From Isoetes taiwanensis (lineage: Eukaryota > Streptophyta > Lycopodiopsida > Isoetales > Isoetaceae): a stretch of DNA of 64,000 bases. Position 1 is the stretch's first letter; each line of letters opens with the position of its first letter. The stretch is taken from NCBI GenBank assembly GCA_021234155.1, contig JAJEKV010000004.1, forward strand, positions 17,979,310-18,043,309. Direction: 5' to 3'. Both the position numbers and the translations under genes were made by a program. Shown piece by piece: positions 3,904 through 61,560 of the stretch. A model generated the notes under the pieces. It searched no databases, was not told the origin of the DNA, and saw nothing but the letters and a program-made list of their open reading frames with translations.

Positions 3904-4058
3904 GCACGCTAAGCGTGTATATTTTTTTCCTATATATCAGTTTACACGCTGAGTGTGTAAAAAAAATTATCCTTAGTTTCAACTCTTAGTTTAAACACGC
4001 CGGGCATGTCTCTTAGTTTCTAAGTTTATAAATAAATAAATATAACACACCAGGCATG
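3904..4058. repeat. Cluster of CACGC..GCGTG palindromic 13-mers
   Basis: Four related palindromes within 155 bp: CACGCTAAGCGTG (3904), CACGCTGAGTGTG (3945), CACGCCGGGCATG (3996) and CACACCAGGCATG (4046), separated by AT-rich DNA. They lie in noncoding sequence just upstream of the coding block at 4.2 kb. In copy B (49.72-49.87 kb) the first three are partly scrambled. See the finding on this motif family. Confidence 0.75.
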
Positions 4059-4198
4059 AATACTGATACTCCTCTAACTTCCTATTGTTAGATGCCAAGT
4101 TACATAAATCACCCAGTTGATGATCAAGATGCAATAGTGGGTTTGTAACATTACCATTCTTTTAATATATTGATGACACAGTTCTTCAAAAAAAAAAA

Positions 4199-4570
4199 GA
4201 TGCAATAGTTGGTTACGTCCATTTGGGGCAGCAATCACACAGCCCGGCTCCAGTTGCGGCTCCAAGCTCCAGTCCGGTTGAAGCACATCCGAGCACCAGT
4301 CCGGCTGGAGCCCCAGTTGCACTACAATACTTGGATCAAGTGATGATGATGAATGCAGAGCGCAGGGCCATTTTAAATCTGGGCTCTGAGGCCCTTGAGA
4401 TGACACGGAGGCTGGCCGTGTTATCTGACCACTTCAATAATGCTGTACATGCATTGATCGAGAGCGAATCTCGCAACCGTCAGCTTGAGATTCAAAATGA
4501 GGAGCTTTGTTTCTTAGTGGCCAGCCTTTATGCCTGCATGCCTCAACACGAACCACTACCGCATCGATAG
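4199..4570 (+). CDS. Pro/Ser-rich plus coiled-coil exon, copy A
   Basis: Open frame ending at TAG 4568-4570. The first 40 residues are low-complexity (SHSPAPVAAPSSSPVEAHPS, then TSPAGAPVAL). The remainder, from MMMNAERRAILNLGSEALEM through HFNNAVHALIESESRNRQLE to IQNEELCFLV, is a likely amphipathic or coiled helix of about 70 residues. No ATG opens the long frame, so it is probably an internal or terminal exon; the in-frame ATG triplet at about 4341 would give the helical part alone. The block precedes the composite gene and could be its upstream exon or a separate short gene. I do not recognise a family. Confidence 0.45.
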   Translation, partial: DAIVGYVHLGQQSHSPAPVAAPSSSPVEAHPSTSPAGAPVALQYLDQVMMMNAERRAILNLGSEALEMTRRLAVLSDHFNNAVHALIESESRNRQLEIQNEELCFLVASLYACMPQHEPLPHR

Positions 4571-5323
4571 CCAAGCTACTCAGTAGACTGGGCTAAACAG
4601 TCTGGGATTTTGTATGTCGGGTTTATCCAGATTATATATAATTGTAAAATTTTGCCAATCAATACAACAAATTTTGTCTACTTCTATATTTCTACAATGT
4701 AATACATGTTATATACCTTTTTTAAGCGGTTTCTTGGCCATGCAACAAAAGTTCCAACACTTTCACCAACCGTATCCCCACCGGGATGTCTGCGAGGTAA
4801 AGCTCCATCCATAGTGCAGCAGTTAATCACTGTAACTCGGACATACTTATCCCCGAGCGAAATTCCATGACAGTTTGCAGTCGGATCGATGGAGTCGATC
4901 TTGCATAATCCTACTTTCCTTTTCTGGATTTGTAGTTAACATGAAACATTCATCTTCGACAATGCAGACAATTGCATACTCAGACACCTACTATTGGAAA
5001 TTATTGTACAAACTATAGGAATGAGATGCGTATATGAATTTTGTAGCCATTCTTGAGAAGTCGATTCGAGTTCTCGAAATCACAGGCACTATGGAAATGC
5101 AGGCGGTCGGGAAAAATTCGAATTAGAAGAAAGATTAGGTTAACTACGTTTAGGCGGGATAAATGTAATCAATAAAAGAACACGGTAGATTGGTTTCTAA
5201 AAACTCAATGAAAAAAGTCGGCGGATGGGTTCTTTTTTTTTTTTGAAAGTGAATCTTTGTCATTATTATTTTTATGTGTCAAGAATATTTCAAAACTGCA
5301 TATTGAGTTTTCTTGAAATTCAA
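4571..5323. other. No gene recognised
   Basis: AT-rich sequence with no convincing splice-bounded coding block. A short open frame at 4614-4814 is conserved in copy B only because the whole region is identical there, so conservation is no evidence for coding. Confidence 0.5.
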
Positions 5324-5394
5324 ATTTCTCGTACAGGTAGAAAAAGCTATTTCTTGGCAGCTATTTCTCGTACAGGTAGAAAAAGCTATTTCTT
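5324..5394. repeat. Two-copy tandem repeat, 39-bp period
   Basis: The segment ATTTCTCGTACAGGTAGAAA followed by AAGCTATTTCTT occurs twice head to tail. It is identical in copy B (51144-51214). Confidence 0.9.
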
Positions 5395-5451
5395 CGAGTA
5401 GCTAGAGCGCTTATCCAAGCGACCTTCCGGATTCCAGAAATATCTTCTAAA

Positions 5452-5565
5452 ATGAGAGGTGGTTGAGGCGGACGGGGCCAAGGAGGCGGTGGCAAAGGAA
5501 ACTCAAAACCCGGCTCTTCTCAAGTTTCAGATGACGTTGATCAGACCCCTTTATGCTTTGCATGA
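5452..5565 (+). CDS. RGG-like short ORF with in-frame TGA
   Basis: From ATG 5452 the frame reads MRGG, stop (TGA 5464-5466), GGRGQGGGGKGNSKPGSSQ, VSDDVDQTPLCFA, stop. Gly/Arg-rich starts of this kind are common in RNA-binding or chromatin proteins. The TGA sits where CGA would continue the RGG repeat, and it is present in both copies. It might be the first exon of the composite gene downstream; no clear donor is seen. Unrecognised, low confidence. Confidence 0.25.
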
Positions 5566-5646
5566 ATTTGAGTTATTTCCTTGCCTTCAGTTATTATGCT
5601 TTGCATGAATTTGAGTTATTATGCTTTGCATGAATTTGAATTATTA
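5554..5646. repeat. Three copies of a 23-bp repeat
   Basis: TGCTTTGCATGAATTTGAGT plus TAT occurs at 5554, 5598 and 5622, the last with AATT for AGTT. It is present in the same form in copy B. Confidence 0.85.
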
Positions 5647-5761
5647 CCTTCAGTTAATGCTCTGATTCTCTATTTTTTAGAATATAGTTCTTAGTAGTTT
5701 TTAACAGAGGGGTACACACCCATTTAGAATATAATTTTTAGTAGTTTTAAATAGCGAGGTT

Positions 5762-5979
5762 CACGCTAAGCGTGAACTGGAGGTTTGGCAGTTACAGATA
5801 GCAGTGTTCAATGAGGTTGAATAGTGTGAAATATGGATGCATGAAGGGTAAGTAGCTTAAAATGTGGATGCATACTAATTTACCTTCAAATTCACGCCAA
5901 GCATGGTTCACAATAGGAGCTACCAACACGCCAAGCGTGAATTATACTAATTTAGGTTTAAATTCATGCCAAGTGTGAT
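5762..5979. repeat. Cluster of CACGC..GCGTG palindromic 13-mers
   Basis: CACGCTAAGCGTG (5762), CACGCCAAGCATG (5893), CACGCCAAGCGTG (5927) and CATGCCAAGTGTG (5967) lie directly before the first composite-gene exon, the last only about 50 bp from its acceptor. They are in the presumed intron or 5' flank. Confidence 0.75.
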
Positions 5980-6026
5980 CTCTTTTTCTGAAAAGTATTC
6001 TAAAATGTGTTCATCTTCTTTTGCAG

Positions 6027-6487
6027 TGCCCAAGAGGAAGAAAACCCCTAATAATTCGAGGTCTGTACCTGGTAAGAAACCAAGGGTAGACGACCCAGAT
6101 GCAATACCATATAATCTCACCTTAGATGATGAAAGGCCTATTCTTATAGCAACCACTGACCCTGCGTGCACTGAAGAGGAAATGGACGAGGGTGCCGAGT
6201 GGTACGTTGATCTCGCCAAGACAAATGGCAAGCTCGTCTTCTCGAGGAAAAAGGAAGCAGACAAGATGACCAAATAAGAGATCCTAATCTCTTGTGAGGA
6301 AGGGGACGACACCAACTGCAAATTGCTATTGGAGATGACACATAAGCAGAAGAAAGATCTGCTCAGACTTACACACTGTAGAGCTACTGCATACAAGGAT
6401 ACGTTCATGAAAACAGATGTGAATGGTGAGATATGTTTTAAGTATGGTTGGCCCACCAATATAGCAGTTACGCCAATGCCAAAATGA
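6027..6487 (+). CDS. Composite gene, NLS-like exon, copy A
   Basis: The exon follows a clean acceptor (TTCTTTTGCAG). It opens with VPKRKKTPNNSRSVPGKKPR, which reads as a bipartite nuclear localisation signal. Acidic sequence follows (DDPDAIPYNLTLDDERPILI, then TDPACTEEEMDEGAEWYVDL). The frame meets TAA at 6275-6277 and then continues in the same frame as EILISCEEGDDTNCKLLLEM and KYGWPTNIAVTPMPK up to a stop at 6487. Copy B has the same TAA. The context (next exons 240 bp downstream, same strand) makes this the 5' part of the composite gene. The family is unknown; nuclear location is inferred from the basic clusters only. Confidence 0.5.
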
Positions 6488-6728
6488 ATGTGCACTTGGT
6501 CAGGGGTTCAAACCCTGGCCAGTGTATGTTTAGCTTTGGGTGTTGGTTACTGGGGTTATACGGCCATGATCCCCGACGTGGTAGAACTTAAAAGCCTATA
6601 CATGTCCTCCACTTTGGCTGCTCGTTGGCAGTGGGACAAAAACTAGCTAGTCTGTCAAAAGACTAGTCTAGACCAGTAAAAGTTGGTTTACAGATTACTG
6701 TGGCTGGTTTACTGGTTACTGTCTATAG

Positions 6729-7285
6729 GAGGGTCCTAAATCTAGGGAAGGATGTTCAACCTGCAGTTGTCGAAGGCATGGAGGCTTCTATTTTTGAGAA
6801 TGAACAGGACAGGGTGGCGCAGTTAGAGGCCATGAACAAGCTGAATAAGTACTCTGACCATTATCCATTGGGTCTTAAGAAAACTTTTCAGATCCATGTG
6901 AAGTCCCTCATCTGTTCACCAAGCTCCATTTATGTTAACAGAAGATATGATCCAGCACATGCCATAGAGATTGTTCAGAGCATGATTAGTAATCCAGGTC
7001 AAATGCCTATGCCAGCGGATGTGTTACCTTGGGATATGATCTCAACAAGCCCGCTGTGTGGACGAACATCGAGGAGTTATTATTAAATGATGACATTAAA
7101 TTGGCCATCATCGACGGGCAAAGATTCCGCTGAGGCACAAAAGGCCCCTCATCGTGCATGCAACAAACAGACAAACCGCGGTTCTACAATCACTATGCGT
7201 ATAGGAGGTGTCGACTCTTGGATGCCAATACTTCACCTGCAGATTTGGCTGAGATTAGTGCAAGGAAGACATTTCTATACAAAAG
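6729..7285 (+). pseudogene. Composite gene, DGQH (ParB-like) exon, copy A
   Basis: Bounded by a TGTCTATAG acceptor and an AAG|GTAATT donor. The first 105 codons are clean (RVLNLGKDVQPAVVEGMEAS, then FQIHVKSLICSPSSIYVNRR and IVQSMISNPGQMPMPADVLP). The frame then breaks near 7042, where the copy B base G of CTCGAACAAG is missing. The key segment that copy B reads as FVIIDGQHSVEAQKAL is split here by further changes at 7117-7185. The copy is treated as broken, most likely technically. Confidence 0.55.
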
Positions 7286-7319
7286 GTAATTAACTACATT
7301 AGGATATTATCATTTTAAT

Positions 7320-7680
7320 ATTAAGCGCATTTAATCAATTGATTATCGCCGGGCGCAGCGAAATCAAATATGAAAGCGTAGTTTTTAAAGCAAAACAATT
7401 AAGGAATTGTTTTGTTTTAAAAGCACGCCTGGCGTGAATTGGTTTGATTTAGAAGCACGCCTGGCGTGAATTCAATTGATTAAGAAGCACGCCTGGCGTG
7501 AATTCAATTGATTTAGAAGCACGCCTGGCTTGAATTCAATTGATTTAGAAGCACACCTGGCGTGAATTGCTTTGTTTTAAAAGCACGCTTGGCGTGAATT
7601 GCATTAGTAGCTTAATTCATTTCACGTCAGGCGTGCTTTCTATGTTGATCAATTCAGTTCTATTCAAATCGCGCCCGACG
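7320..7680. repeat. Foldback and tandem array of the palindromic motif, copy A intron
   Basis: The right arm (7408-7600) holds six head-to-tail units of 32-33 bp, each an AAGCACGCCTGGCGTGAATT core plus a short AT spacer. The left arm (7320-7402) is the inverted counterpart but is badly scrambled. Copy B shows it more clearly (GGCGTGCTTCTAAATCAAAC and so on). One further inverted core lies at about 7622-7638. The array sits wholly inside the intron after the DGQH exon. There are no unique spacers and no nearby nuclease genes, so it is not a CRISPR array. Confidence 0.85.
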
Positions 7681-7822
7681 TGTTTCTGTTCTATGATGCT
7701 GATTCAATGTCTGTACTATTATAGTCCATACGTGGAGCAACTGCCCATTACCCACCGCATGTATGGGTCAAAGTCCGAGGCATTCAAGTCGCCGGTTTTA
7801 CTCGCCGCAGACAATTATATAG

Positions 7823-9707
7823 GAGAAGAAGAAGACTGCAAGAAAATCAAAGAAAAAAGGTGGTGATAATATTGCAGATCCTTCTGATAGCACATCTAGC
7901 GTGTCGCCCAATGCACTTTATAAGATTATCTTTGTAAGGAGGCAAGATGGCTCAAGTGGAATGAATTCCGGACGCTTTATGCACAAAGGAAGCCGCCGAT
8001 ACTATGGGTAGGGTGCCTCCCTCGCTGATGTAAGCATCTTTGACTTGAATGTGACGTAGATGAGAAAGATTCAGGGGCTAGACGATTAATCGAGACCATT
8101 TGGGTTTTAGACCAAAGGCTCTCAAGAAGGAAGTCTTATACAAGAAGAGTGCTTTTACTAAGGATAGGATGTCCTTCGTTAAGTGTTGTACCCATGTGAA
8201 GGATGTATGTACAATGAAGTTAATGTGAGGAGCCGAAGTTACAAAGGCTATCGTGGGATGTGGCATTATCCGAATCGGATTGCTGGACAAATACAAGGTC
8301 AGTAATGATGACATCAAGAAGTTTGTATTCTGGTCAAAAGACTTCCTAAAGAATTGGAAGGCTAAAAATGCAAAACATAAAGAGACTCTACCCCCAAGGT
8401 ACAAAAATCGAAGTTGAGAAGAAAAGTGGCCCTTTGTGAAGAAGATTACCGGAGAAGAAGACACCGCCCAAAGATTCGGCCTCCATTGGGTACAAAGGTC
8501 TCTTGCCGTAATCAACTACTTGCCTTAAAAAACATATCACTTTTGTGTTGATAACAGGGCGGAGAGGAGATATGGGCATGAACCGTAAGGACTACAACAT
8601 CTTCTTTACCGCTTGTATAGGATTGACAAACCGAGAGGTCCTTTATTATTGTCATCGCTTGTCCTTCGGTGACTCACATCTCGCATGCACTATCCGCTGC
8701 TCATGATCCGAGTGCCTCAAAGTTATTAGGAGGGATGCCTAATATATGATGTTAAGGATAATGAGCTCAAATACCACGTAAGATGGCACATGTGATTTTA
8801 ATTATGATATCCATGCTGTCAGACGCGGAATATGATGATGCTAAGGCCAAGGGTGACAATAGCAGTGCATGGGAATGTTTTCTTCTAGATGATCCAGACT
8901 TAACAATTATATTCTATCATACGGATCGATCGTGATCGAAAATGAACATGATCAATCAGAAGAGGATGAGGATCGGGACCCTCTCCTAAGTGATGAAATC
9001 AAGTACGAGCTACTAACTAAGGAGAAGGGCCCCCTTAAATAAAAAATGGATTTCCCCGCCTATGGCTGCTTACCTCGTCGAGGCATTTGCTCCAATTGAT
9101 ACAACCTGCTTGGAGCTTCATCTTGGAGGTTATATTGCCCGAGAGGCTCTTATGGATGTTAGAAGTTGTCACTGCTTTGTGAGTGATGAGCCGGCCAAAG
9201 ACCTTCTTGAACCATTCCTCATGCATGTACTTGCCAAATCTCCTAAAGGCCCTTATGACAACTTGAAATCTTCAGCAATCAAAAGTCTCGTGGACTTGTC
9301 CAATTCAAAAATGGACGATAGTTCTGGTGAGGGAACTAGTAATCCGCAGCCTGATAAGGAAAGCAATGACCAAGTGGCTGCTAAACTGGCTGCTCATAGT
9401 GATGTGATGAAGGCGAACATAGGGAATATCCTTGCCTCCCTTGCGGGTGATGCAAGCAACAATAAAATAGATTCACAAGTTAACAAGATCTAATTGATAA
9501 GGCAACCGAGAGTGAAGGGGCCATTGGCAACCCAAGCGACTCTAGTGATTCACAGGTTTGCCAAATCAATACTAAAATAATGTCAGTTGTGAAAGACGTA
9601 GAGGAACTAATAGAAAATAACAATTCTAACAGTCAGAAGAGCACGGAGATTAAGGGTGGCGAAGGGGAGAATGACACCGACGACGGCAACGAAACTGAAG
9701 ATGATAG
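7823..9707 (+). pseudogene. Composite gene, long middle exon, copy A
   Basis: Counterpart of the intact copy B exon, but shattered between 7.82 and 9.06 kb by about a dozen small changes, mostly at CAG/CTG (for example GACACTGAGACC became GACGATTAATCGAGACC). From 9062 the frame is clean and better than copy B: MAAYLVEAFAPIDTTCLELH, then GTSNPQPDKESNDQVAAKLA and NIGNILASLAGDASNNKIDS. One base shift near 9490 follows, then an acidic/Asn-rich tail (MSVVKDVEELIENNNSNSQK, GENDTDDGNETEDD) ending at a GATAG|GTATAG donor that joins in phase to the HAD exon. The 3' third of this exon should be read from copy A. Confidence 0.6.
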
Positions 9708-9729
9708 GTATAGCTTTGTAGATGAAATT

Positions 9730-9865
9730 GCACCACGCGTGATTTAATTTATCTTAGGTTTGAATTAAATAGTGCCAAGCGTGCATTGATTATATTTCAT
9801 TGTCACACTAAATCATGCCGAGCGCGATTTGGTTAAGACTAACTCAAATCACGCCTGGCACGTTT
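9730..9865. repeat. Palindromic-motif cluster in the last composite-gene intron, copy A
   Basis: Degenerate members of the 13-mer family: CACCACGCGTG (about 9731), GTGCCAAGCGTG (9772), CATGCCGAGCGCG (about 9816) and CACGCCTGGCACG (about 9849). They lie between the middle exon and the HAD exon. Copy B has further-changed versions at 55565-55700. Confidence 0.65.
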
Positions 9866-9918
9866 GTATTGTTTGTGTGATCATATCTTGCTGACCAGAT
9901 ACATGTTTGATATTTCAG

Positions 9919-10542
9919 CTTGCCTTGCGTATCTAAGAAGGTTGTGGTATTCGATCTAAATGGAGTCCTTTATAAGACTTTTCCGAAAAATAAAGTGGCT
10001 AGAGATCAGTTTCATCAGACACCAGTAGAATCAAACACCAAATGGATCTATCCGCAGCCGCACTTGAAGGAGATGCTAGATGAGGCATTCGAGTTGGTAT
10101 TCGGTCATCCATAGAACTAAAGAACATCAAGGATACTTTGGAGGCATTGGGGGAAATGCATAGACATTGGTTGACCTTTTGGGATCGTAACAAATGTGAA
10201 GCTCACTAATCCTAAGGATCCAACAGTGCAAGCCTATCTTCATCAAACACTTGAGTAAATATGATGGACTAACTTGGTATCGAGAATAAGGATGATATAA
10301 TCATAGTGGATGATGATGCTCTCAAATGCTTCTATAATCAAACGCAGGCTCTGAATCCACCATCTTACGATCCAAAAAATTTTGCGGCAGATGATTTTCT
10401 GGTGAAGTTTATGTCCATTATGAATAATTTGGCTATGGGGATGACGGTGCGAAGTGTTAGATTCACACCTTAACCGATAGAACGGGCCGACATGGAACCA
10501 CACCTTGTTACATACGTGGAAAAACATGGATTGATCCCTTAA
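9919..10542 (+). pseudogene. Composite gene, FCP1/NIF-like HAD exon, copy A
   Basis: Terminal exon after a TGATATTTCAG acceptor. It starts with LPCVSKKVVVFDLNGVLYKT, the first HAD motif of FCP1/NIF-type phosphatases, with Asn in place of the second Asp. The frame shifts at GAGTTGGTATTCGGTCATCC (about 10094-10113), where the conserved Gly-hydrophobic-Trp-Ser-Ser motif should be. It goes on in another frame as SSIELKNIKDTLEALGEMHR. Copy A has extra shifts at 10187, 10226, 10262 and 10455 that copy B lacks. The end (NNLAMGMTV .. YVEKHGLIP) matches copy B. Confidence 0.65.
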
Positions 10543-11640
10543 TGTTTTATTGGAATATATGATATTTTTGTATGATATTTGTGTCATGTATCGATAATTT
10601 CGGATCTGCAATTGCCTCGCAAATAATGCAATCTGTTATTATCAAACCTAATATTTTCATCTAAATGCAGTTCAATTTTGGTCTCATCTATCTTAGCAAC
10701 TTGCTCTTCATTTTTGCATATTTCAATTCGCATATGAAACGACACACGTGAATTGCAACCTTATGTTATTTATCAAGCCCAAAAAAAAAGATTAAAAAGA
10801 ACAAAAACCCCCTAGAAGACAACAGCGGGTTGGCGTGATTTACGTAATCCCAATTTAATTGGATGATAGTTATAGGGTACGCCCTAACACTAATGTTCCT
10901 AAGCTATCCAAAGAAATAAACAAAGTAGTCCACCTTTTTCTAACATTCATCTTCAAACATTGTGAGACTTAACTGTGCCTATGAGGCTTCTCTAGCTAGT
11001 TCATCTTCAATACACATTTCAGTATGTCAGAGAGGCAGTTATCAAAATACAGGGAATTATATTATAGTCATAATTGCTGCTACTCAGGGGAAAGGAAAGC
11101 CTAAGTTCACTGCTGTTACAAAATGATGGTGGCAAAAATAGATATTCACATGGCTCCACTACTGATTTTACGCATAAATACAATCGCTGGTTCGACAGAA
11201 ATCTGACAAGAGTCTCTAGCTAGTCTTTCCTTGGCTTTGGACCTTTGCTTATTCTGCCTTTCATATTCCTACCCTTTGCAGATGGTCAATCTCATGATTT
11301 TCATGATTCAGTTAGGGATCATGGATAGTATTTTTGTTTGCTCTTGCAGGAAAAAGAGGATCTCAACTACATACAACACTTGACTTCAAGGTTTTTTTCT
11401 CCAAATTAGGAATTGGATATCTCTCTCTTTTATGGGAGCTGACACTACTGATATTCTCTCCTCATATTCGGATGTTATGTTCTAAACTTTCATGGCTACA
11501 TTATTTTCATATTTCTTATTTTGATGCTCACTCCAAATGAGTATCCTGGTTCTAACCATAACCCTGCTATATAGCAGCTTGGTTTATGGCTTGTATGGCT
11601 TTATCTAGTTAATGGAAAAATCTACCCTTACTCTCAAAAA
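10543..11640. other. Intergenic; nothing firm
   Basis: AT-rich sequence downstream of the composite gene. The stretch 11334-11540 is an open but composition-poor frame without splice borders. It ends in an A13 run at 11637-11649 preceded by CTACCCTTACTCTC, which may be the tail of an old retroposed sequence. Confidence 0.45.
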
Positions 11641-47920: not shown

Positions 47921-48299
47921 ATGTTGTTACTTAGTCCCCATTATGATTTGAAACATATCGAGGAAAAGTGAAAAATTGGATCGGGATTCACGGGAATTCA
48001 CATTTGCTCTTTCGCCGGGGGTTAGCTTCGACCACGAAGCGAGAGAATGAAATGTCGGAAGAAAAGAGCGAGGAGGAGGAAGAAGAAGATTTGGAAGAAG
48101 GTGCGAATTCGACCAATTTCTCGAATAATTGGTGATTGAGAGGACTTAGGTTTGCATGTCTATTTTCTTTTTTGCTTTTCGTACTTTTCTAACACCCTTC
48201 TTTCTTGCAGACATGGAAGAAGAGAAGTGATGCAGTTCCCGAACCCTTTTGTTTTTGTTAAAGAAGTTATGGTCACGCCTCAGGGCATTTTTTGTGTAA
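47921..48299 (+). pseudogene. Acidic two-exon ORF, copy B (disrupted)
   Basis: Counterpart of the acidic ORF of copy A. The poly-Glu stretch and the last exon are recognisable, but the frame is broken at several former CAG/CTG positions: GGATCAGG became GGATCGGG, GTCTGAGG became GAGCGAGG, and the LEWLAV segment is lost. The last exon and its TTCTTGCAG acceptor are unchanged. The breaks look technical, because copy A reads through the same place. Confidence 0.5.
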
Positions 48300-50012
48300 A
48301 AATATTGTGAAAAGCCTTCGGGCATCTGATTACAAGCCTCTGGGCTCGGACATGTAAATGAATCAATTTTTTAATGAATTCAAAGTGTTTTGTCTAAGCT
48401 ATTTTGTATCTATGAAATTTTGTCTCTGCATTTGCCTCAATAAAGTCTGGGGAACACTATAAATCAACCGGTTGAAATTGCATAAATGGAAAATTTTAGG
48501 CTCTAAACATGAGATATCTGATTCATCAAAGTAACCATAGGAACTTTTTCGATCGACCTAAAGAAATTCCCCAACACTAAAAATCATTTTTAATTGAGGG
48601 CTGTAATTTAGCCTTGATACTTGAGGGAAAAAGACATATAAAATATCTAAATTTTGTTTTTCAAATGCAATAAATGGAATAAAATCTTGGTGAGAATTTA
48701 TTGCATTAAATACAATATTCTCCATATATACCATATATGTTATATCGGCGGGAAGGCAAATGCGGGCGTGTTAATTCAAGCAATCAATTATTCACGCTTA
48801 TTTATTTCTAATTATGCCTATATAAATCCAATTCCGCTCTCAAAATTTCTACCTATTCTTCCTTTCTTCATATGATTTGCGGTTTCGCTTACGCCCGCGT
48901 TTTGATCCGCCCTCCTAAAATCTTGGTGGCAGGTTTCTTTTTCGGCAATGTTAGATGCTTCTTTGGTTTCGGCAATTCCTAACTTACTTGAAGACTACGC
49001 CTTTTGTTACGTAGCATCATGTAGCGAGAAGACATCGGTGCTTGAGAGGACATCGAACAAGCCTCGAGAATCAAAAGCCTCGAAATTCAAGGTTAGTTTG
49101 ATTTAGTTTTAAAATTTTGCATGTCAATAGCGGGTTTAATCCAAGAAGAAGCTCATTCATTTGCTTTCGGAGGAAGCGGATGATGTTTATGAAAACGAGA
49201 ATAGTTTTTATGAACTTCATGCGCTTCTTTTTCGATGATGTTATCACAAAGACTATGTACAGTTAACGTTTATAAAAACAATTAAAAGACTTCGTTCAAA
49301 GTGAGCACATATTTCCCAATATCTACCCTGGGTTTTTAAGCCAGGCCACATCAGGTACTCCTACTTCCATGCAACTCCTACTCAAGGTTTTCCATATAAC
49401 AGTAGTATAGAATTCATATGTAACATTTAAAAAATATTGTCAAAGAAATTTCAGTTCATTTTGTCAAAAGAATATCAGATAACTATACTTCAATCATATA
49501 TTTCCATGTTCCCAGTACGTTTTTGTTCATATCAGCCTTTCTTATTTCAATAAAAACCTTCTTATGCTTCACTAATAAATTGGAAAATGAGTAAATCAAT
49601 AAATCAGCAATTCTTCCCATGTCCTTTTGTTTTTTTACAGTAACATTCTTACGTGTTATTACTGGCCTTTAGCTATTTACTTATCTATCTGTATAGGTTT
49701 TTTTTCTCTCTACATTTTAATGCAGCTAAAGCGTGTATATTTTTCCTATATATCGGTTTACATTTGAGTGTGTAAAAAAATTATCCTTAGTTTCAACTCT
49801 TAGTTTAAACCAGTAGGGCATGTCTCTTAGTTTCTAAGTTTATAAATAAATAAATATAACACACCAGGCATGAATACTGATACTCCTCTAACTTCCTATT
49901 GTTAGATGCCAAGTTACATAAATCACCCAGTTGATGATCAAGATGCAATAGTGGGTTTGTAACATTACCATTCTTTTAATATATTGATGACACAGTTCTT
50001 CAAAAAAAAAAA

Positions 50013-50385
50013 GATGCAATAGTTGGTTACGTCCATTTGGGGCAGCAATCACACAGCCCGGCTCCAGTTGCGGCTCCAAGCTCCAGTCCGGTTGAAGCAC
50101 ATCCGAGCACCAGTCCGGCTGGAGCCCCAGTTGCACTACAATACTTGGATCAAGTGATGATGATGAATCACGGAGCCTTGAGGGGCCATTTTAAATCGGG
50201 CTCGAGGCCCTTGAGATGACCACGAGGTGGCCGTGTTATCGACCACTTCAATAATCTTTGTACATGCATTGATCGAAGCCCGAATCTACATAGCCGTCAA
50301 CGAGATTCAAAATGAGGAGCTTTGTTTCTTAGTGGCCAGCCTTTATGCCTGCATGCCTCAACACGAACCACTACCGCATCGATAG
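50013..50385 (+). pseudogene. Pro/Ser-rich exon, copy B (disrupted)
   Basis: The Pro/Ser-rich first part is identical to copy A. From 50165 the frame breaks where copy A has AATGCAGAGCGCAGGGCC and this copy has AATCACGGAGCCTTGAGG. More losses of CTG follow (TCTGGGCTCTGAGG to TCGGGCTCGAGG). The last 60 bp match again. The pattern is the CAG/CTG-linked disruption seen throughout. Confidence 0.5.
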
Positions 50386-51842
50386 CCAAGCTACTCAGTA
50401 GACTGGGCTAAACAGTCTGGGATTTTGTATGTCGGGTTTATCCAGATTATATATAATTGTAAAATTTTGCCAATCAATACAACAAATTTTGTCTACTTCT
50501 ATATTTCTACAATGTAATACATGTTATATACCTTTTTTAAGCGGTTTCTTGGCCATGCAACAAAAGTTCCAACACTTTCACCAACCGTATCCCCACCGGG
50601 ATGTCTGCGAGGTAAAGCTCCATCCATAGTGCAGCAGTTAATCACTGTAACTCGGACATACTTATCCCCGAGCGAAATTCCATGACAGTTTGCAGTCGGA
50701 TCGATGGAGTCGATCTTGCATAATCCTACTTTCCTTTTCTGGATTTGTAGTTAACATGAAACATTCATCTTCGACAATGCAGACAATTGCATACTCAGAC
50801 ACCTACTATTGGAAATTATTGTACAAACTATAGGAATGAGATGCGTATATGAATTTTGTAGCCATTCTTGAGAAGTCGATTCGAGTTCACCGAAATCCAC
50901 CGAGCACTATGGAAATGCTGGTGATTCGAGGAAAAATTCGAATTAGAAGAAAGATTAGGTTAACTACGTTTAGGCGGGATAAATGTAATCAATAAAAGAA
51001 CACGGTAGATTGGTTTCTAAAAACTCAATGAAAAAAGTCGGCGGATGGGTTCTTTTTTTTTTTTGAAAGTGAATCTTTGTCATTATTATTTTTATGTGTC
51101 AAGAATATTTCAAAACTGCATATTGAGTTTTCTTGAAATTCAAATTTCTCGTACAGGTAGAAAAAGCTATTTCTTGGCAGCTATTTCTCGTACAGGTAGA
51201 AAAAGCTATTTCTTCGAGTAGCTAGAGCGCTTATCCAAGCGACCTTCCGGATTCCAGAAATATCTTCTAAAATGAGAGGTGGTTGAGGCGGACGGGGCCA
51301 AGGAGGCGGTGGCAAAGGAAACTCAAAACCCGGCTCTTCTCAAGTTTCAGATGACGTTGATCAGACCCCTTTATGCTTTGCATGAATTTGAGTTATTTCC
51401 TTGCCTTCAGTTATTTTGCTTTGCATGAATTTGAGTTATTATGCTTTGCATGAATTTGAATTATTACCTTCGTTAATGCTCCTGATTCTCTATTTTTTAG
51501 AATATAGTTCTTAGTAGTTTTTATCAGAGGGGTACACACCCATTTAGAATATAATTTTTAGTAGTTTTAAATAGCGAGGTTCCGCTAAAAGCGTGGCTGG
51601 AGGTTTAGCGATTCTGAATAGCGGTGTTCAATGAGGTTGAATAGTGTGAAATATGGATGCATGAAGGGTAAGTAGCTTAAAATGTGGATGCATACTAATT
51701 TACCTTCAAATTCCATAAGCATGGTTCACAATAGGAGCTACCAACGCATGGCGTGAATTATACTAATTTAGGTTTAAATTCATGCCAAGTGTGATCTCTT
51801 TTTCTGAAAAGTATTCTAAAATGTGTTCATCTTCTTTTGCAG

Positions 51843-52315
51843 TGCCCAAGAGGAAGAAAACCCCTAATAATTGAGGTGCGTGCACGGTAGAAACCAAGGG
51901 TAGGCGACCCGGATCTGCAATACCATATAATCTCACCTTAGATGATGAAAGGCCTATTCTTATAGCAACCCAGCGACCCTGCGTGCCTTTGAAGAGGAAA
52001 TGGGCGAGGGTCTTAGAGTGGTGCGTTGATCTCGCCAAGACAAATGGCAAGCTTCGTCTTCTCGAGGAAAAAAAAGCGGAACAAGATGACCAAATAAGAG
52101 ATCCTAATCTCTTGTGAGGAAGGGGCGACACCAAGCGCAAATTGCTATTGGAGATGACACATAAGCGAGAAGAAAGATCTGCTTTCGGACTTACACCTTT
52201 AGAGCTCACGCATACAAGGATACGTTCATGAAAGCAGATGTGAATGGTGAGATATGTTTTAAGTATGGTTGGCCCACCAATATAGCGATTCACGCCAATG
52301 CCAAAATGAATGTGC
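51843..52315 (+). pseudogene. Composite gene, NLS-like exon, copy B (disrupted)
   Basis: Same acceptor as in copy A and the same PKRKKTPNN start. The frame then breaks at 51873-51890, where TCGAGGTCTGTACCTGG of copy A became TTGAGGTGCGTGCACGG, and at many later CAG/CTG sites. The shared TAA after GATGACCAAA is also present. Use copy A for this exon. Confidence 0.5.
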
Positions 52316-52548
52316 ACTTGGTGGGGTTCAAACCACGGCGGTGTATGTTGCTTTGGGTGTTAGTTCTTGGGGTTATCTGACCATGATCCCAGGCGTGGTA
52401 GAACTTAAAAGCCTATACATGTCCTCCACTTTGGCTGCTTTCGTTGGCGGTGGGACAAAAAAACTAGCTAGTCGTCAAAGACTAGTCTAGACCCGATAAA
52501 AAGTTAGTTTCTGATTCTTGTGGCTGTTTCTTTGGTTCTTGTCTATAG

Positions 52549-53113
52549 GAGGGTCCTAAATCTAGGGAAGGATGTTCAACTGCGGTTGTCCGAAGGCATG
52601 GAGGCTTCTATTTTTGAGAATGAAACGGGGACAGGGGGTGGCTTGATTAGAGGCCATGAACAAAGGCTGAATAAGTACTTTCGACCATTATCCATTGGGT
52701 CTTAAGAAAACTTTTCAGATCCATGTGAAGTCCCTCATCTGTTCACCAAGCTCCATTTATGTTAACAGAAGATATGATCCAGCACATGCCATAGAGATTG
52801 TTCAGAGCATGATTAGTAATCCAGGTCAAATGCCTATGCCAGCGGATGTGTTACCTTGGGATATGATCTCGAACAAGCCTGTTGTGTGGACGAACATCGA
52901 GGAGTTATTATTAAATGATGACATTAAATTCGTCATCATCGACGGGCAGCATTCCGTTGAGGCACAAAAGGCCCTCATCAGGCATGCAGAACAAACAGGA
53001 CAAACCGTGTTCTACAATCACTATGCGTATAGGAGGTGTCGACTCTTGGATGCCAATACTTCACCTGCAGATTTGGCTGAGATTAGTGCAAGGAAGACAT
53101 TTCTATACAAAAG
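52549..53113 (+). CDS. Composite gene, DGQH (ParB/sulfiredoxin-like) exon, copy B
   Basis: The last 140 codons before the AAG|GTAATT donor are intact: MGLKKTFQIHVKSLICSPSS, NRRYDPAHAIEIVQSMISNP, then NIEELLLNDDIKFVIIDGQH and SVEAQKALIRHAEQTGQTVF, ending LAEISARKTFLYKR. The hydrophobic strand followed by Asp-Gly-Gln-His and a small-residue helix is the hallmark loop of the ParB/sulfiredoxin (DGQHR) fold. In prokaryotes and phages that fold is often joined to DNA methylases or nucleases. The usual Arg of DGQHR is Ser here, so any nucleotide-binding role may be altered. The 5' part of the exon (52549-52690) is disrupted at CAG/CTG sites; copy A reads it cleanly. The next intron carries the palindromic foldback. 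Confidence 0.6.
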
Positions 53114-53144
53114 GTAATTAACTACATTAGGATATTATCATTTT

Positions 53145-53515
53145 AATATTAAGGCGTGCTTCTCAATCAATTGAATTCACGCCGGGCGTGCTTCTAAATC
53201 AAACCAATTTACGCCAGGCGTGCTTTTAAAGCAAAACAATTGGCGTGAATTGTTTTGCTAAAAAGCTGCGCTGGCGTGGTTAGTTTTTAATTTAAACGCG
53301 CGGCGTAATTCAATTGATTAAAAACGCTGGCGTGAATTCAATTGATTTAGAAACGCGCTGGCGAATTCAATTGATTTAGAAGCACACCTGGCGTGAATTG
53401 CTTTGTTTTAAAAGCACGCTTGGCGTGAATTGCATTAGTAGCTTAATTCATTTCACGTCAGGCGTGCTTTCTATGTTGATCAATTCAGTTCTATTCAAAT
53501 CGCGCCCGACGTGTT
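53145..53515. repeat. Foldback and tandem array of the palindromic motif, copy B intron
   Basis: The left arm (about 53152-53240) reads GGCGTGCTTCTCAATCAATT, GAATTCACGCCGGGCGTGCT and so on, up to AAAGCAAAACAATT. It is the reverse complement of the right arm seen cleanly in copy A (AATTGTTTTGTTTTAAAAGC onward). The right arm here (53245-53380) is scrambled. Taken together the two copies reconstruct an inverted repeat with arms of roughly 85-90 bp, followed by direct repeats of the same unit. Confidence 0.8.
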
Positions 53516-53656
53516 TCTGTTCTATGATGCTGATTCAATGTCTGTACTATTATAGTCCATACGTGGAGCAACTGCCCATTACCCACCAGACAGGGCGGGT
53601 CAAAGTCTGAGGCATTCAAGCTGCTGAAGCGGACTCTGTCGCAGACAATTATATAG

Positions 53657-55540
53657 GAGAAGAAGAAGACTGCAAGAAAATCAAAGAAAAAAGGTGGTGA
53701 TAATATTGCAGATCCTTCTGATAGCACATCTAGCAGGTCAGGTCTAACAGACTCTTATAAGATTATCTTTTGTAAGGAGGCAGTATGGCTCAAGTGGAAT
53801 GAATTCTGGGACGCTTATGCACAAAGGAAGCTGCCAGATACTATGGGTAGGGTGCCTCCTGTTGATGTAAGCATCTTTGACTTGAATGTGACAGAGATGA
53901 GAAAGATTCAGGGGCTAGACGACACTGAGACCATTTGGGTTTTAGACCAGTGCCTGAAGAAGGAAGTCTTATACAAGAAGAGTGCTTTTACTAAGGATAG
54001 GATGTCCTTCGTTAAGTGTTGTACCCATGTGAAGGATGTATGTACAATGAAGTTAGCTGTAGGAGCTGAGTTACAAAGGCTATCAGGGGATGTGGCATTA
54101 TCTGAAATCGGATTGCTGGACAAATACAAGGTCAGTAATGATGACATCAAGAAGTTTGTATTCTGGTCAAAAGACTTCCTAAAGAATTGGAAGGCTAAAA
54201 ATGCAAAACATAAAGAGACTCTACCCCCTAAGGTACAGGCCGAGTTGAGAAGAAAAGTGGCCCTTGTGAAGAAGATTACTGGAGAAGAAGACACTGTCCA
54301 GTATTCAGTCTCCATTGGGTACAAAGGTCTCTTGCCAGAATCAACTACTTGCCTTAAAAACATATCACTCTTTGTGTTGGATAACAGGGGCGGGAGAGGA
54401 GATATGGGCATGAACCAGAAGGACTACAACATCTTCTTTACCAGTTGTATAGGATTGACAACTGAGAGGTCCTTTATTATTGTCATCGTTTGTCCTTCGG
54501 GTGACTCACATCTGCATGCACTATCCGTTGCTCATGATCTGGAGTGCCTCAAAGTTATTAGGGAGGGATGCCTAATATATGATGTTAAGGATAATGAGCT
54601 GCGAATACCACAGAAGATGGCACATGTGATTTTAATTATGATATCCATGCTGTCAGACGCGGAATATGATGATGCTAAGGCCAAGGGTGACAATAGCAGT
54701 GCATGGGAATGTTTTCTTCTAGATGATCCAGACTTAACAATTATATTCTATCATACGGATCAGGATCAGGATCAGGAACAGGAACATGATCAATCAGAAG
54801 AGGATGAGGATCGGGACCCTCTCCTAAGTGATGAAATCAAGTACGAGCTACTAACTAAGGAGAAGGGCCCCTTAAATAAAAATGGATTTCCCCCGTCTAT
54901 GGCTGCTTACCTCGTCGAGGCATTTGCTCCAATTGATACAACCTGCTTGGAGCTTCATCTTGGAGGTTATATTGCCCGAGAGGCTCTTATGGATGTTAGA
55001 AGTTGTCACTGCTTTGTGAGTGATGAGCCGGCCAAAGACCTTCTTGAACCATTCCTCATGCATGTACTTGCCAAATCTCCTAAAGGCCCTTATGACAACT
55101 TGAAATCTTTGAGCAATCAAAGTCACCGTGGACTTGTCCAATTCAAAATGGGCGATGGATTACGGTGGGAACTAGTAATCCATGACGATAAGATAAAGCA
55201 ATGACCAAGTGGCTGCTAAAGCTGGTTTGCTCATAGTGATGTGATGAAGGCGAACATAGGAATATCCTTGCCTCCCTTGCGGGTGATGCAAGCAACAATA
55301 AAATAGATTCACAAGTTAACAAGATCTAATTGATAAGGCAGAAGAGTGAAGGGGCCATTGGCAGCAAAGCGACTCTAGTGATTCCGCGGGTTTGCCAAAT
55401 CAATACTAAAATAATGTCGGTTGTGAAAGGCGTGAGAGGAACTAATAGAAAATAACAATTCTAGCGGTCGGGAAGAACGCGGAGATTAAAGGGTGGCGAA
55501 GGGAGAATGACAAACGGCGGCAACATGGCGAAGATGATAG
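53657..55540 (+). CDS. Composite gene, long middle exon, copy B
   Basis: Open frame of 515 codons (53657-55204), the longest in the window. The ATG at 53843 gives 453 residues, but the frame opens earlier and an upstream exon probably supplies the start. A basic stretch (EKKKTARKSKKKGGDN) comes first, then WNEFWDAYAQRKLPDTMGRV, a helical charged part, ISLFVLDNRGGRGDMGMNQK, FIIVIVCPSGDSHLHALSVA, an acidic linker (DQDQDQEQEHDQSEEDEDRD) and SMAAYLVEAFAPIDTTCLEL ahead of HLGGYIAREALMDVRSCHCF. The last block resembles the Pro..VLD.FxGxG..A..R part of N4/N6-type DNA methylases with the catalytic Gly-rich and DPPY motifs lost. That is my inference, not a match I can prove. The 3' end (55140-55540) is disrupted; copy A shows the true acidic tail and donor. 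Confidence 0.75.
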
Positions 55541-55755
55541 GTATAGCTTTGTAGATGAAATTGCACCCTTGGCGTGATTTAATTTATCTTAGGTTTGAAT
55601 TAAATAGTGCCAAAGCGTGCATTGATTATATTTCATTGTCACACTAAATCATCAGAAGTGGCGATTTGGTTAAGACTAACTCAAATCACTTTGAACGCGT
55701 TTGTATTGTTTGTGTGATCATATCTTGCTGACCAGATACATGTTTGATATTTCAG

Positions 55756-56382
55756 CTTGCCTTGCGTATCTAAGAAGGTTGTGGTATTCGATCTAAATGG
55801 AGTCCTTTATAAGACTTTTCCGAAAAATAAAGTGGCTAGAGATCAGTTTCATCAGACACCAGTAGAATCAAACACCAAATGGATCTATCATGGCCCGCGC
55901 TTGAAGGAGATGCTAGATGAGGCATTCGAGTTGGTATTCGGTCATCCATAGAACTAAAGAACATCAAGGATACTTTGGAGGCATTGGGGGAAATGCATAG
56001 ACATTGGTTGACCTTTTGGGATCAGAACAAATGTGTGAAGCTCACTAATCCCAAGGATCCAACAGGCAAGCCTATCTTCATCAAACACTTGAGTAACATG
56101 ATGGACGAACTTGGTATCGAGAATAAGGATGATATAATCATAGTGGATGATGATGCTCTCAAATGCTTCTATAATCAAACGCAGGCTCTGAATCCACCAT
56201 CTTACGATCCAAAAAATTTTGCGGCAGATGATTTTCTGGTGAAGTTTATGTCCATTATGAATAATTTGGCTATGGGGATGACGGTGCGTGAAGTGTTAGA
56301 TTCACACCCAGAACTGGATAGAACGGCTGACATGGAACCACACCTTGTTACATACGTGGAAAAACATGGATTGATCCCTTAA
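55756..56382 (+). CDS. Composite gene, FCP1/NIF-like HAD domain exon, copy B
   Basis: The terminal exon joins in phase to the middle exon (AG|C). HAD motifs in order: VVVFDLNGVLYKT (nucleophile Asp kept, second Asp replaced by Asn), then LKEMLDEAFELV, motif II partly lost at a frameshift (about 55931-55950) that is shared with copy A, then KDTLEALGEMHRHWLTFWDQ, KPIFIKHLSNMMDELGIENK (motif III Lys), DDIIIVDDDALKCFYNQTQA (motif IV Asp pair) and PPSYDPKNFAADDFLVKF. It ends at TAA after VEKHGLIP. Known family members are CTD phosphatases and plant homologues. Asn at the general-acid position suggests a pseudophosphatase or a changed reaction. From 55975 onward 135 codons are intact. Confidence 0.8.
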
Positions 56383-57992
56383 TGTTTTATTGGAATATAT
56401 GATATTTTTGTATGATATTTGTGTCATGTATCGATAATTTCGGATCTGCAATTGCCTCGCAAATAATGCAATCTGTTATTATCAAACCTAATATTTTCAT
56501 CTAAATGCAGTTCAATTTTGGTCTCATCTATCTTAGCAACTTGCTCTTCATTTTTGCATATTTCAATTCGCATATGAAACGACACACGTGAATTGCAACC
56601 TTATGTTATTTATCAAGCCCAAAAAAAAAGATTAAAAAGAACAAAAACCCCCTAGAAGACAACAGCGGGTTGGCGTGATTTACGTAATCCCAATTTAATT
56701 GGATGATAGTTATAGGGTACGTCCTAACACTAATGCTCCGGCTATCCAGCAAATAAACAGGCGAGTCCACCTTTTTCTAACATTCATCTTCAAACATTGT
56801 GAGACTTAACTGTGCCTATGAGGCTTCTCTAGCTAGTTCATCTTCAATACACATTTCAGTATGTCAGAGAGGCAGTTATCAAAATACAGGGAATTATATT
56901 ATAGTCATAATTCTTTGCTACTCGGGAAAAAGGAAAGCCTAAGTTCCTTCTTTATTTACAAAATGATGGTGGCAAAATAGATATTCACATGGCTCCACTA
57001 CTGATTTTTCTGAGACAATACAATCGATTGGTTCGGCGAAATCACGGACGGTAGCCCTAGCTAGTCTTTCCTTGGCTTTGGACCTTTGCTTATTCTGCCT
57101 TTCATATTCCTACCCTTTGCAGATGGTCAATCTCATGATTTTCATGATTCAGTTAGGGATCATGGATAGTATTTTTGTTTGCTCTTGCAGGAAAAAGAGG
57201 ATCTCAACTACATACAACACTTGACTTCAAGGTTTTTCTCCAAATTAGGAATTGGATATCTCTCTCTTTTATGGGGTGACACTCTTGATATTCTCTCCTC
57301 ATATTAGGATGTTATGTTCTAAACTTTCATGGCTACATTATTTTTCATATTTCTTATTTTGATGCTCACTCCAAATGAGTATCACGGTTCTAACCATAAC
57401 CACGCTATATAGCGGCTTGGTTTTATGGCTTGTATGGCTTTATCTAGTTAATGGAAAAATCTACCCTTACTCTCAAAAAAAAAAAAAAAAAGCTAGTAAA
57501 TATGAAGAGCCCACTCCGCGCCCTGTTTACTAGTTGGAATAACTAAGTGGGTTTTGCTGTTTTACTAGCTAGAAACAACGGGCGAGGGGCAATTGAGCTC
57601 TTTAACCGACAACTAAAATTTTTCGATATCAAACATAGTTTATTAGAACTAGATCTTGAGGATTGCCCACTTATCTCCTTTTTCGTTTTGGCGTGATTGA
57701 GTTGATGGTTTGACAAAGCGGCATTTGGGAATTCATTTGGATGCGATGGGGCTGAAAAGACAAATAATAATATGACATTGTTTACGGTGTGTTCGATTCG
57801 ATTCATATCGGCGGTTGTTGGAGTAGAAATAGTCGTAAAAATAATCTCGTAAAAATTCTTGCATCGACACTGGCTGGCGATGGCGGATTTCAGGCAATCC
57901 TTATCTCCTTCAATATCGTGGTGGTTTAAGACTTCAAGCTCGGCTGATATGGCCAGTAACCCGACATCTTTGGGATCTGTTTTTTTCCTGTC

Positions 57993-57999
57993 TATATAA
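57993..57999 (+). promoter_or_regulatory. TATA box for the small secreted ORF, copy B
   Basis: Identical CTATATAAG, 47 bp before the ATG at 58040. Confidence 0.55.
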
Positions 58000-58039
58000 G
58001 CAGGGCTTCTCTTACTTTGTTTGTTCAGAGATCTTGGAG

Positions 58040-61553: not shown

Positions 61554-61560
61554 TATAAAT
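61554..61560 (+). promoter_or_regulatory. TATA box of the cystatin gene, copy B
   Basis: Same TATAAAT, 43 bp before the ATG at 61597. Confidence 0.6.

What the first reader, a model, noticed from the sequence alone, without database searches (positions are those of the whole stretch)
51843..56382. Composite gene: NLS-like start, ParB/DGQH-like segment, long middle region and FCP1-type HAD end
The exons are collinear and the middle and last exons join in phase. FVIIDGQHSVEAQKAL is a DGQHR/ParB-like loop, and the C-terminus carries HAD motifs of FCP1/NIF phosphatases. Between them, SMAAYLVEAFAPIDTTCLEL and HLGGYIAREALMDVRSCHCF resemble the Pro..VLD..GxG..ALxxxR layout of N4/N6 DNA methylases without catalytic residues. 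ParB plus methylase is a common prokaryotic and phage pairing; fused to a plant CTD-phosphatase-like domain it would be new to me. It may be a domesticated chromatin or transposon-derived protein.
Basis: partly seen in the sequence, partly recalled or inferred. Interest (0 to 1): 0.75.

Follow-up and report, generated by a model that had tools for sequence, protein, structure and literature searches.

The report
Quillwort transposon's ParB-methylase-phosphatase cargo gene
The odd composite gene is a decayed copy of an accessory gene carried by a very abundant 12-14 kb DNA transposon in what is probably a quillwort genome; it fuses a bacterial-type ParB-like DNA-binding domain, a worn-out DNA-methylase domain and a phosphatase-like domain, and the transposon carries arrays of DNA palindromes that this protein may bind.

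Summary
It is one broken copy of an accessory gene of an abundant DNA transposon: 12.4-13.7 kb in three copies, TIRs, identical 4-bp TSDs at 13 of 13 insertions with both ends examined, 3,011 TIR matches genome-wide against 0 control. The transposase (Pfam DUF7869) lies on the opposite strand; the window copy lacks it. In less damaged copies the cargo has three main exons: ParB/DndB-like (DGQH), a middle region, and an FCP1/NIF-type HAD domain; a distant clade reads through the ParB-middle junction without an intron. Profile comparisons with ParB domains and with N4/N6 methylases beat all permuted controls (0 of 150 each). Methylase catalytic motifs are lost and the second HAD Asp is Asn, yet dN/dS between two subfamilies is about 0.2 (ParB and middle exons). 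ParB-MTase accessory genes are already reported for a Sola1 transposon of Ectocarpus and for algal transposons; the HAD fusion, the lycophyte host and clade-specific palindrome arrays in the intron between ParB and middle exons appear new within my searches. Best mechanism (inferred): a sequence-specific, VANC-like regulator or anti-silencer of its own transposon.

The parts
48197..56711 (+). 5'-truncated relic of the DNA transposon; aligns with the cargo half of other copies, transposase half absent
   Evidence: blastn against other copies; no transposase match in the window and only the 3' TIR found
51843..53113 (+). first main cargo exon: basic NLS-like start (KRKK, by eye) and ParB/DndB-like DGQH region; broken into several frames here, one open frame of about 400 aa in other copies
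   Evidence: ORFs; Pfam DndB E 1.5e-4; hhalign to phage ParB; donor AG|GTAA; acceptor at 51843 read
53178..53466 (.). intron array of palindromes CACGCC-N-GGCGTG (5 sites with at most 1 mismatch at 53178, 53210, 53383, 53415, 53454), candidate binding sites of the ParB-like domain
   Evidence: genome-wide adjacent pairs 537, control 0
53556..55204 (+). second main exon: middle region with degenerate N4/N6 methyltransferase-like half (motif-I-like stretch TTCLELHLGGYIAREALMDVR)
   Evidence: acceptor; hhalign against MTases; dN/dS 0.18-0.20 between subfamilies
55756..56382 (+). third main exon: FCP1/NIF-type HAD domain (FDLNGVL, IIIVDDD), frame break near 55930, stop at 56380-56382
   Evidence: Pfam NIF; acceptor ttcag
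56689..56711 (-). 3' terminal inverted repeat (AACTATCATCCAATTAAATTGGG read on the minus strand)
   Evidence: TIRs and TSDs of other copies
2187..10871 (+). second relic of the same element in the duplicated 18-kb segment, its middle exon in more pieces; 7 palindrome sites between 7424 and 7635

Best explanation
The feature is a decayed copy of the accessory (cargo) gene of a 12.4-13.7 kb DNA transposon with a DUF7869 transposase and 4-bp TSDs (Sola-like). By my estimate the intact gene makes a protein of roughly 1,150-1,250 aa: basic NLS-like start, ParB/DndB-like domain, N4/N6-methyltransferase-like domain without catalytic motifs, and an FCP1/NIF-like HAD domain. Shown by computation: the transposon, the collinear three-part gene, its selection as protein (ParB and middle exons) and its domain resemblances. 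Inferred: the protein enters the nucleus, its ParB-like part loads on the palindrome arrays in the element's own introns and noncoding parts, the dead methylase half serves as a DNA- or partner-binding scaffold, and the HAD half acts on, or docks to, phosphorylated transcription machinery. The outcome would be sequence-specific control of the element's own expression, most likely relief of host silencing, in the manner of plant VANC proteins. Confidence: transposon accessory gene about 0.97; domain composition about 0.9; palindromes as its target about 0.45; anti-silencing as the purpose about 0.35. The figure below is for accessory gene plus domain composition plus action on its own element.
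For: TIRs and 4-bp TSDs in 3 of 3 elements with both ends found (of 5 copies followed upstream) and 10 of 10 further end pairs; 3,011 TIR matches, control 0. Transposase DUF7869 E 6e-38; 49 of 50 transposase-cargo pairs within 25 kb in the expected opposite-strand geometry. Collinear exons 41 of 41. The same three-part order in divergent clades. In L024 the ParB-like ORF reads on without intron through the residues that begin the middle exon elsewhere (SPF..Q against SPY..Q), bridging the inferred splice. ParB and MTase profile matches beat every permuted control. dN/dS 0.18-0.22 with dS about 0.6-0.75 between the window clade and L009, for the ParB and middle exons. Palindrome arrays in the same intron with different sequence in two clades, conserved palindromes and near-background linkers. 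The design parallels VANC proteins, which bind family-specific tandem motifs in noncoding parts of their own TEs (PMC10398659, passages read), and VirB, a ParB-type antisilencer (PMC10770331, abstract read).
Against: No binding, expression or methylation data exist here. Palindrome arrays were not found in L024 plus L030 (17 kb), a clade that also has no intron at that junction, and are weak in L015 (2 sites). Only 14 of 26 listed array loci lie near a listed cargo or transposase match (match lists are capped). 99 of 136 transposase matches have no listed cargo match within 25 kb, mostly those under 90% identity (63 of 71), which may be capped lists or elements without this cargo. A one-row structure prediction of the middle exon failed (pLDDT 32), and no PDB sequence match exists for the middle profile. 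The MTase alignment covers only the motif-I half; the motif-IV equivalence (LDNR/LDSR) is read by eye. HAD selection could be estimated only at saturated or very small dS. The dN/dS script dropped poorly aligned codons, which lowers dN.
Confidence: 0.6

Rival explanations
1. The protein is a repressor or copy-number regulator of the element, like DndB in its operon: it binds the intron array within its own gene and damps cargo and transposase expression.
For: The best Pfam match of the window exon is DndB; most sites lie inside its own gene.
Against: Arrays inside introns are not at a known promoter; a repressor gives less reason for a HAD/CTD-phosphatase-like domain. DndB's autorepression is recalled, not read here.
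Confidence: 0.25
2. The protein assists transposition: it holds the element ends or intron arrays together as a nucleoprotein complex, or aids segregation, in the way of ParB at parS.
For: ParB-like domain; arrays mostly with 32-bp spacing; the accessory gene lies with the transposase.
Against: Most sites lie in the internal intron rather than at the ends.
Confidence: 0.2
3. A working DNA methylase of the element, modifying its own DNA, as proposed for the Ectocarpus protein.
For: Methylase-like profile and ParB fusion; proposed for algal relatives (PMC12477816).
Against: No (D/N/S)PP(Y/F/W) motif in 27 of 27 methylase-half rows nor in the 7 middle ORFs checked, and no FxGxG at the motif-I position.
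Confidence: 0.07
4. Three unrelated cargo genes that happen to sit side by side in the element.
For: No transcript evidence was available.
Against: Read-through of the ParB-middle junction in L024, conserved splice sites, in-phase middle-HAD junction in L015, the same order in divergent clades.
Confidence: 0.05

Closest known systems
ParB plus N4/N6 methyltransferase accessory protein of Sola1-1_Ec32 (Ectocarpus) and the green/red algal transposon relatives it cites (PMC12477816, passages read)
   Same: ParB-like plus methyltransferase domains in one protein of about 1,100 aa, on the strand opposite the transposase of a large DNA transposon
   Different: Here a land plant (probably Isoetes), methylase motifs lost, a C-terminal FCP1/NIF-type HAD domain, palindrome arrays in the intron; no sequence comparison was possible
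VANC anti-silencing proteins of Arabidopsis VANDAL transposons (PMC10398659, passages read)
   Same: TE-encoded accessory gene; family-specific tandem short motifs in noncoding parts of the TE
   Different: Unrelated transposon type (VANDALs are MULEs: recalled); ParB-like domain and palindromes here; binding and demethylation untested here
Phage ParB-methyltransferase fusions (L032, L039, L065-L070, L072)
   Same: Domain order ParB then N4/N6 MTase; profile similarity of the ParB part above all controls; MTase part in the same way with a set of 15 MTases, two of them such fusions
   Different: Catalytic motifs lost, extra N-terminal and middle segments, HAD added
TET/JBP-carrying DNA transposons of fungi (PMC12730594, abstract read)
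   Same: DNA transposons that carry a DNA-modification-related accessory gene, across divergent lineages
   Different: Different enzyme family and hosts
DndB / DGQHR proteins
   Same: DGQH motif; Pfam DndB E 1.5e-4 for the window exon
   Different: Score below the Pfam gathering cut-off; fusion to MTase-like and HAD domains

Membership tests
Sola-like DNA transposon | 4-bp target site duplications | tested here: met
   3 of 3 elements with both ends and 10 of 10 end pairs; Sola has 4-bp TSDs (PMC10741241, passages read)
Sola-like DNA transposon | terminal inverted repeats | tested here: met
Sola-like DNA transposon | Sola-type DDD transposase | tested here: inconclusive
   transposase matches DUF7869 (E 6e-38); no Sola reference sequence on hand, catalytic triad not tested
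ParB/DndB-like domain | DGQH/DGQHR motif | tested here: met
   GQH invariant in the five rows; DGQH in most rows, AGQH in the L024 clade, DGHH or DGSD in two decayed rows
ParB/DndB-like domain | score over the curated family cut-off | tested here: not met
   DndB 21.4 bits against 29.1; whole-genome PF14072 search found nothing at E 0.001
ParB/DndB-like domain | profile similarity to the ParB part of phage ParB-MTases | tested here: met
   score 25.0, maximum of 150 permuted controls 19.6
active N4/N6 DNA methyltransferase | motif I (FxGxG) and its surroundings | tested here: inconclusive
   surroundings matched by profile; the glycine motif itself is not met (LHxGGY or VNCGGN)
active N4/N6 DNA methyltransferase | catalytic DPPY-type motif | tested here: not met
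   absent in 27 of 27 methylase-half rows and 7 of 7 middle ORFs checked; LDNR/LDSR at the place expected, by eye
FCP1/NIF HAD phosphatase | NIF profile over cut-off | tested here: met
   57.8 and 69.5 bits in unbroken copies, 39.3 in L015; below the cut-off 21.8 in the broken window copy (20.7) and in L029 (20.4)
FCP1/NIF HAD phosphatase | DxDx(T/V) active site (motif recalled) | tested here: not met
   DxNGV in the window clade, L009, L014/L015, L028/L029 and L024; the host-type gene in L023 has DLDHTL
VANC-like anti-silencing system | family-specific motif arrays in noncoding parts of the element | tested here: met
   two clades with different palindromes; not seen in the L024 clade
VANC-like anti-silencing system | protein binds the motifs and removes silent marks | not testable with these tools
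   needs DAP-seq/ChIP-seq and methylomes
VANC-like anti-silencing system | sequence homology to VANC | not tested
   no VANC sequence used

The most novel reading that the evidence does not exclude
A eukaryotic ParB/parS-like system run by a transposon: a ParB-type protein, fused to a dead DNA methylase and a CTD-phosphatase-like domain, loads on palindrome arrays in its own element and spreads or recruits factors to keep that element, and only that element family, free of silencing. Different clades have changed their palindrome (CACGCCWGGCGTG against TCTCGACTCGCGAGTCGAGA) along with their ParB-like domain.
Probability: 0.3. Interest if true: 0.88.

Novelty: new variant of a known kind. Interest (0 to 1): 0.64.

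Why it matters
It turns an odd 'composite gene' into a defined, testable system: an abundant plant transposon whose accessory protein joins three modules not reported together in what I could search, with candidate binding sites attached. If the protein binds its palindromes, it would be an independently evolved counterpart of VANC anti-silencing built from a bacterial-type ParB-methylase protein, and would help explain how large DNA transposons multiply in lycophyte genomes. It also warns annotators that these exons and NIF-like ORFs can be transposon genes, not host genes.

Tried and rejected
Structure: AlphaFold2 of the window's middle exon as a single sequence gave pLDDT 32, so no fold search was run.

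Sequence searches: no PDB match for the middle profile up to E 10; only weak ones for the HAD exon (best UBLCP1, E 0.023) and one at E 0.69 for the transposase. PHROGs gave only weak ParB hits (E 0.017-0.018); NCBIfam gave DGQHR E 0.11. Weak matches to unrelated families, taken as chance, were an astrovirus capsid model to the acidic L024 middle (E 0.0016, below cut-off), a superantigen-like model (E 0.03) and others of E above 0.01. The DGQH profile found no relative in viral contigs or in one genome per prokaryote species. The Pfam DndB model found nothing in the own genome, although sequence queries do.

Rejected: domesticated single gene (thousands of TIRs); chance ORFs (dN/dS, collinearity); active methylase (motifs lost); a second insertion as the cause of the second window copy (segmental duplication). 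Papers cited by PMC12477816 for algal relatives were looked for in one case and not held, nor were two other papers tried. None of the 8 papers listed for DUF7869 or transposon holds 'DUF7869'. A Ulp1-like reading at 46.5 kb got no Pfam support.

Limits: counts from the genome search are lower bounds (lists capped). Before the neighbour count, 11 of 95 middle rows (second pieces of the same place) were dropped; before, 1 of 137 transposase rows. A first count of linked transposase loci (38) was wrong by one; the recount is 37 of 136. Of the 8 phage loci fetched one (L071) was not used because its gene has no ParB part. Palindrome sites were selected with at most 1 mismatch, so their high mutual identity is partly by construction, and the linker figure for L012 there is unreliable because linker lengths differ. 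The dN/dS script kept only codons in stretches of at least 30% local identity.
Full report
SOURCE. The window is G000:C1045:17979310-18043309 of a genome of 1,658,258,908 bases in 1,110 contigs. The published Isoetes taiwanensis assembly has 1,658.30 Mb in 204 scaffolds plus 909 contigs (PMC8566536, passages read), so this is very probably that quillwort; no sequence test of identity was made.

WHAT IS IN THE WINDOW. On the + strand lie a DGQH ORF (52671-53114), a 515-aa open middle ORF (53657-55201) and two overlapping HAD ORFs (55748-55948, 55921-56379). The copy is broken: the part before the DGQH stretch is split over several frames here but is one frame of about 400 aa in other copies, and the HAD exon, 214 aa open in many other copies, has a frame break near 55,930. 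The similar set at 2.2-10.9 kb is explained by an 18.2-kb duplication in the window at 94% identity.

A REPEAT FAMILY WITH FIXED ARCHITECTURE. Each exon is a high-copy family in the genome: 95 middle matches at 84 places, and 150 DGQH and 150 HAD matches, where the listing stops. Of 150 DGQH matches, 41 have a listed HAD match within 15 kb; all 41 are on the same strand with the HAD downstream, 28 of them 2.6-3.4 kb away. The same holds for 21 of 21 DGQH-middle neighbours (of 150 DGQH matches) and 17 of 17 middle-HAD neighbours (of 84 middle places).

THE TRANSPOSON. Comparing copies with long flanks showed sharp ends. Five copies were followed upstream; three have both ends and measure 12,443, 13,714 and 13,059 bp, with TIRs beginning AACCATCATTCA and TSDs AATT, AATA and ACTT; in the other two (A907, A1029) no 5' end was found in the stretch fetched. 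A pattern search for the 23-bp TIR with at most one mismatch found 1,495 + 1,516 places, control 0. Ten further end pairs about 12.1-12.5 kb apart, chosen from the listed places by spacing and orientation, all have identical 4-bp flanks (10 of 10). The 5' part encodes, on the other strand, a protein with Pfam DUF7869 (E 6e-38). Of 136 transposase matches in the genome, 37 have a listed cargo match within 25 kb (29 of 65 at 90% identity or more, 8 of 71 below), giving 50 transposase-cargo pairs; 49 are in the expected geometry and the exception is at a tandem pair of elements in C363. The window copy has the 3' TIR (56689-56711) but no transposase match and no 5' TIR. Four-base TSDs fit Sola, which is reported from Physcomitrella and can exceed 15 kb (PMC10741241, passages read); no Sola reference sequence was available for a formal test.

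ONE GENE. In window-clade copies and L009 the first exon ends ...TFLYKAG|GTAA and the next begins AG|TCCATAC or close variants (residues SPYVEQ); L014, L015, L028 and L029 have the same acceptor position. In the distant clade of L024 there is no intron here: the ParB-like open frame runs ...EKNKFV-SPFLDQFEQARAQFEIMKCPPKS..., that is, straight into the residues that open the middle exon elsewhere (SPYVEQLRHARQQWVEYGCP... in L009, in one frame with the methylase-like half); the rest of the L024 middle region lies in later ORFs. This bridges the inferred splice and puts ParB-like and middle parts in one protein. In L015 the middle and HAD exons join in phase. The same order, DGQH - middle - HAD, is seen in the clades of the window, L009, L014/L015, L028/L029 and L024; in some of these copies a part is frame-broken. 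The L024 DGQH region matches the window's by phmmer (E 1e-10), and the two methylase-like profiles match each other (95% probability, E 2.5e-8). A weak transposase match (25% identity, E 1.6e-6) lies upstream of and opposite to the L024 cargo (L030).

SELECTION. Between the window clade and L009 (dS about 0.6-0.75), dN/dS is 0.19-0.22 for the first exon and 0.18-0.20 for the middle; between the window clade and the L014/L015 clade dS is saturated while dN is 0.27-0.31 for the middle and the HAD exon; ParB-like dN to L029 is 0.58-0.67. Close pairs show higher ratios (0.3-0.9), as expected of decaying copies. The script kept only codons in reasonably aligned stretches.

DOMAINS. ParB-like: Pfam DndB E 1.5e-4 for the window exon (below cut-off), weak PHROG ParB matches, hhalign of 14 rows against the ParB part of 9 phage ParB-MTases score 25.0, P 0.0048; 0 of 150 column-permuted controls reached it (maximum 19.6). 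Methylase-like: the middle profile (27 rows, some of them fragments of one locus, from two groups of clades) against 15 N4/N6 MTases (one of E. coli, 14 of phages) gives score 36.7, P 2e-4 over 65 columns around motif I; permuted maximum 19.3 (0 of 150), reversed 15.3; each group alone also beats all its controls (27.1 and 29.9 against 18.2). The catalytic DPPY-type motif is absent in 27 of 27 rows and FxGxG is absent at the motif-I position (LHxGGY, VNCGGN; three rows have an unrelated LQGGG elsewhere), but T, E, G, R, A, L and R of the motif-I region are invariant across 13 aligned rows. HAD: NIF 57.8, 69.5 and 39.3 bits in three unbroken or partial exons, 20.4 in L029, just under the cut-off. 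The nucleophile Asp is kept, and the DD motif where the exon can be read that far, but the second Asp of DxDxT/V is Asn (DxNGV) in every clade read, whereas the host-type gene in L023 has DLDHTL. The end of the HAD exon also has a sub-threshold match to DUF433 (E 3e-4).

PALINDROME ARRAYS. The intron between the ParB-like and middle exons holds an array of CACGCC-N-GGCGTG, mostly 32 bp apart: 10 sites in L007 and in L009, 5 in the decayed window copy. With at most one mismatch the three full elements have 15, 11 and 14 sites; shuffles average 0; by my comparison with the ORFs and splice sites, none of these 40 lies in a cargo exon. In the 64-kb window all 15 such sites are inside the two relics. 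Adjacent exact pairs occur at 537 places in the genome, control 0; of 26 array loci among the listed places, 14 lie near a match in my capped lists. The L028/L029 clade has a different palindrome, mostly TCTCGACTCGCGAGTCGAGA, in the same intron (7 sites in L029, 57-64 bp apart; 4 in L028), with 2 more in the second intron of L029 and 2 past the HAD exon of L028; adjacent pairs of its 12-bp core number 824, control 0. In C134 such an array begins about 70 bp after a DGQH match of that clade; I did not test the other places. Linkers between sites are near background similarity while sites are about 0.9 identical, with the caveat that sites were selected by similarity. No array was seen in L024 or L030; L014 has 5 sites, 4 of them in the intron, L015 has 2, and L011, where homology starts inside the middle exon, has none.

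MECHANISM AND COMPARISON. A paper on Ectocarpus describes a gene opposite the transposase of Sola1-1_Ec32 for a 1,104-aa protein with ParB-like and N4/N6 methyltransferase domains, and cites green and red algal relatives (PMC12477816, passages read). The present gene is of that kind, with a HAD domain added and the methylase decayed. VANC proteins bind family-specific tandem motifs in noncoding parts of their own transposons and induce loss of silent marks (PMC10398659, passages read), and the ParB-related VirB is a DNA-clamp antisilencer (PMC10770331, abstract read). The anatomy here - a DNA-binding accessory protein plus clade-specific motif arrays in the element - fits such a role best. This last step is inference; a DndB-like self-repressor or a transposition helper remain possible. 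My paper searches for the ParB-HAD combination or a lycophyte case (only the top of each listing is shown) listed none; subscription literature is mostly not held.

Noticed in passing
window 1-18197 and 45820-63997: 18.2-kb segmental duplication, 94% identical, start-to-start distance about 45.8 kb; could be an old duplication or an assembly feature.
   Followed up: partly
window 46551-46850 (+): Short ORF reading like a Ulp1/C48 peptidase (HW...DS pattern recalled); a 62-aa piece had no Pfam match.
   Followed up: partly
L021 (C1033:3009500-3018499) and L022 (C1039:11299800-11308799): Further NIF-type HAD ORFs with DxNGV motifs (Pfam E 3e-20, 4e-19) and other N-terminal parts (RING-like exon in L022, by eye); possibly more transposon cargo types. 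The ParB and methylase-half profiles found nothing in them.
   Followed up: partly
G000, PF03031 search: At least 151 NIF matches in this genome; some are transposon-borne, so NIF gene counts in such genomes may be inflated.
   Followed up: partly
L028 (positions 6906-8530 of its reverse complement): Pif1-like helicase ORFs of a Helitron-like element (recognised by eye) next to a cargo copy.
   Followed up: no
G000, DGQH clade of L029: 10 of the 150 listed matches are 97-100% identical over the whole query, 5 of them in open frames of about 390-400 aa, suggesting recent activity of that clade.
   Followed up: no
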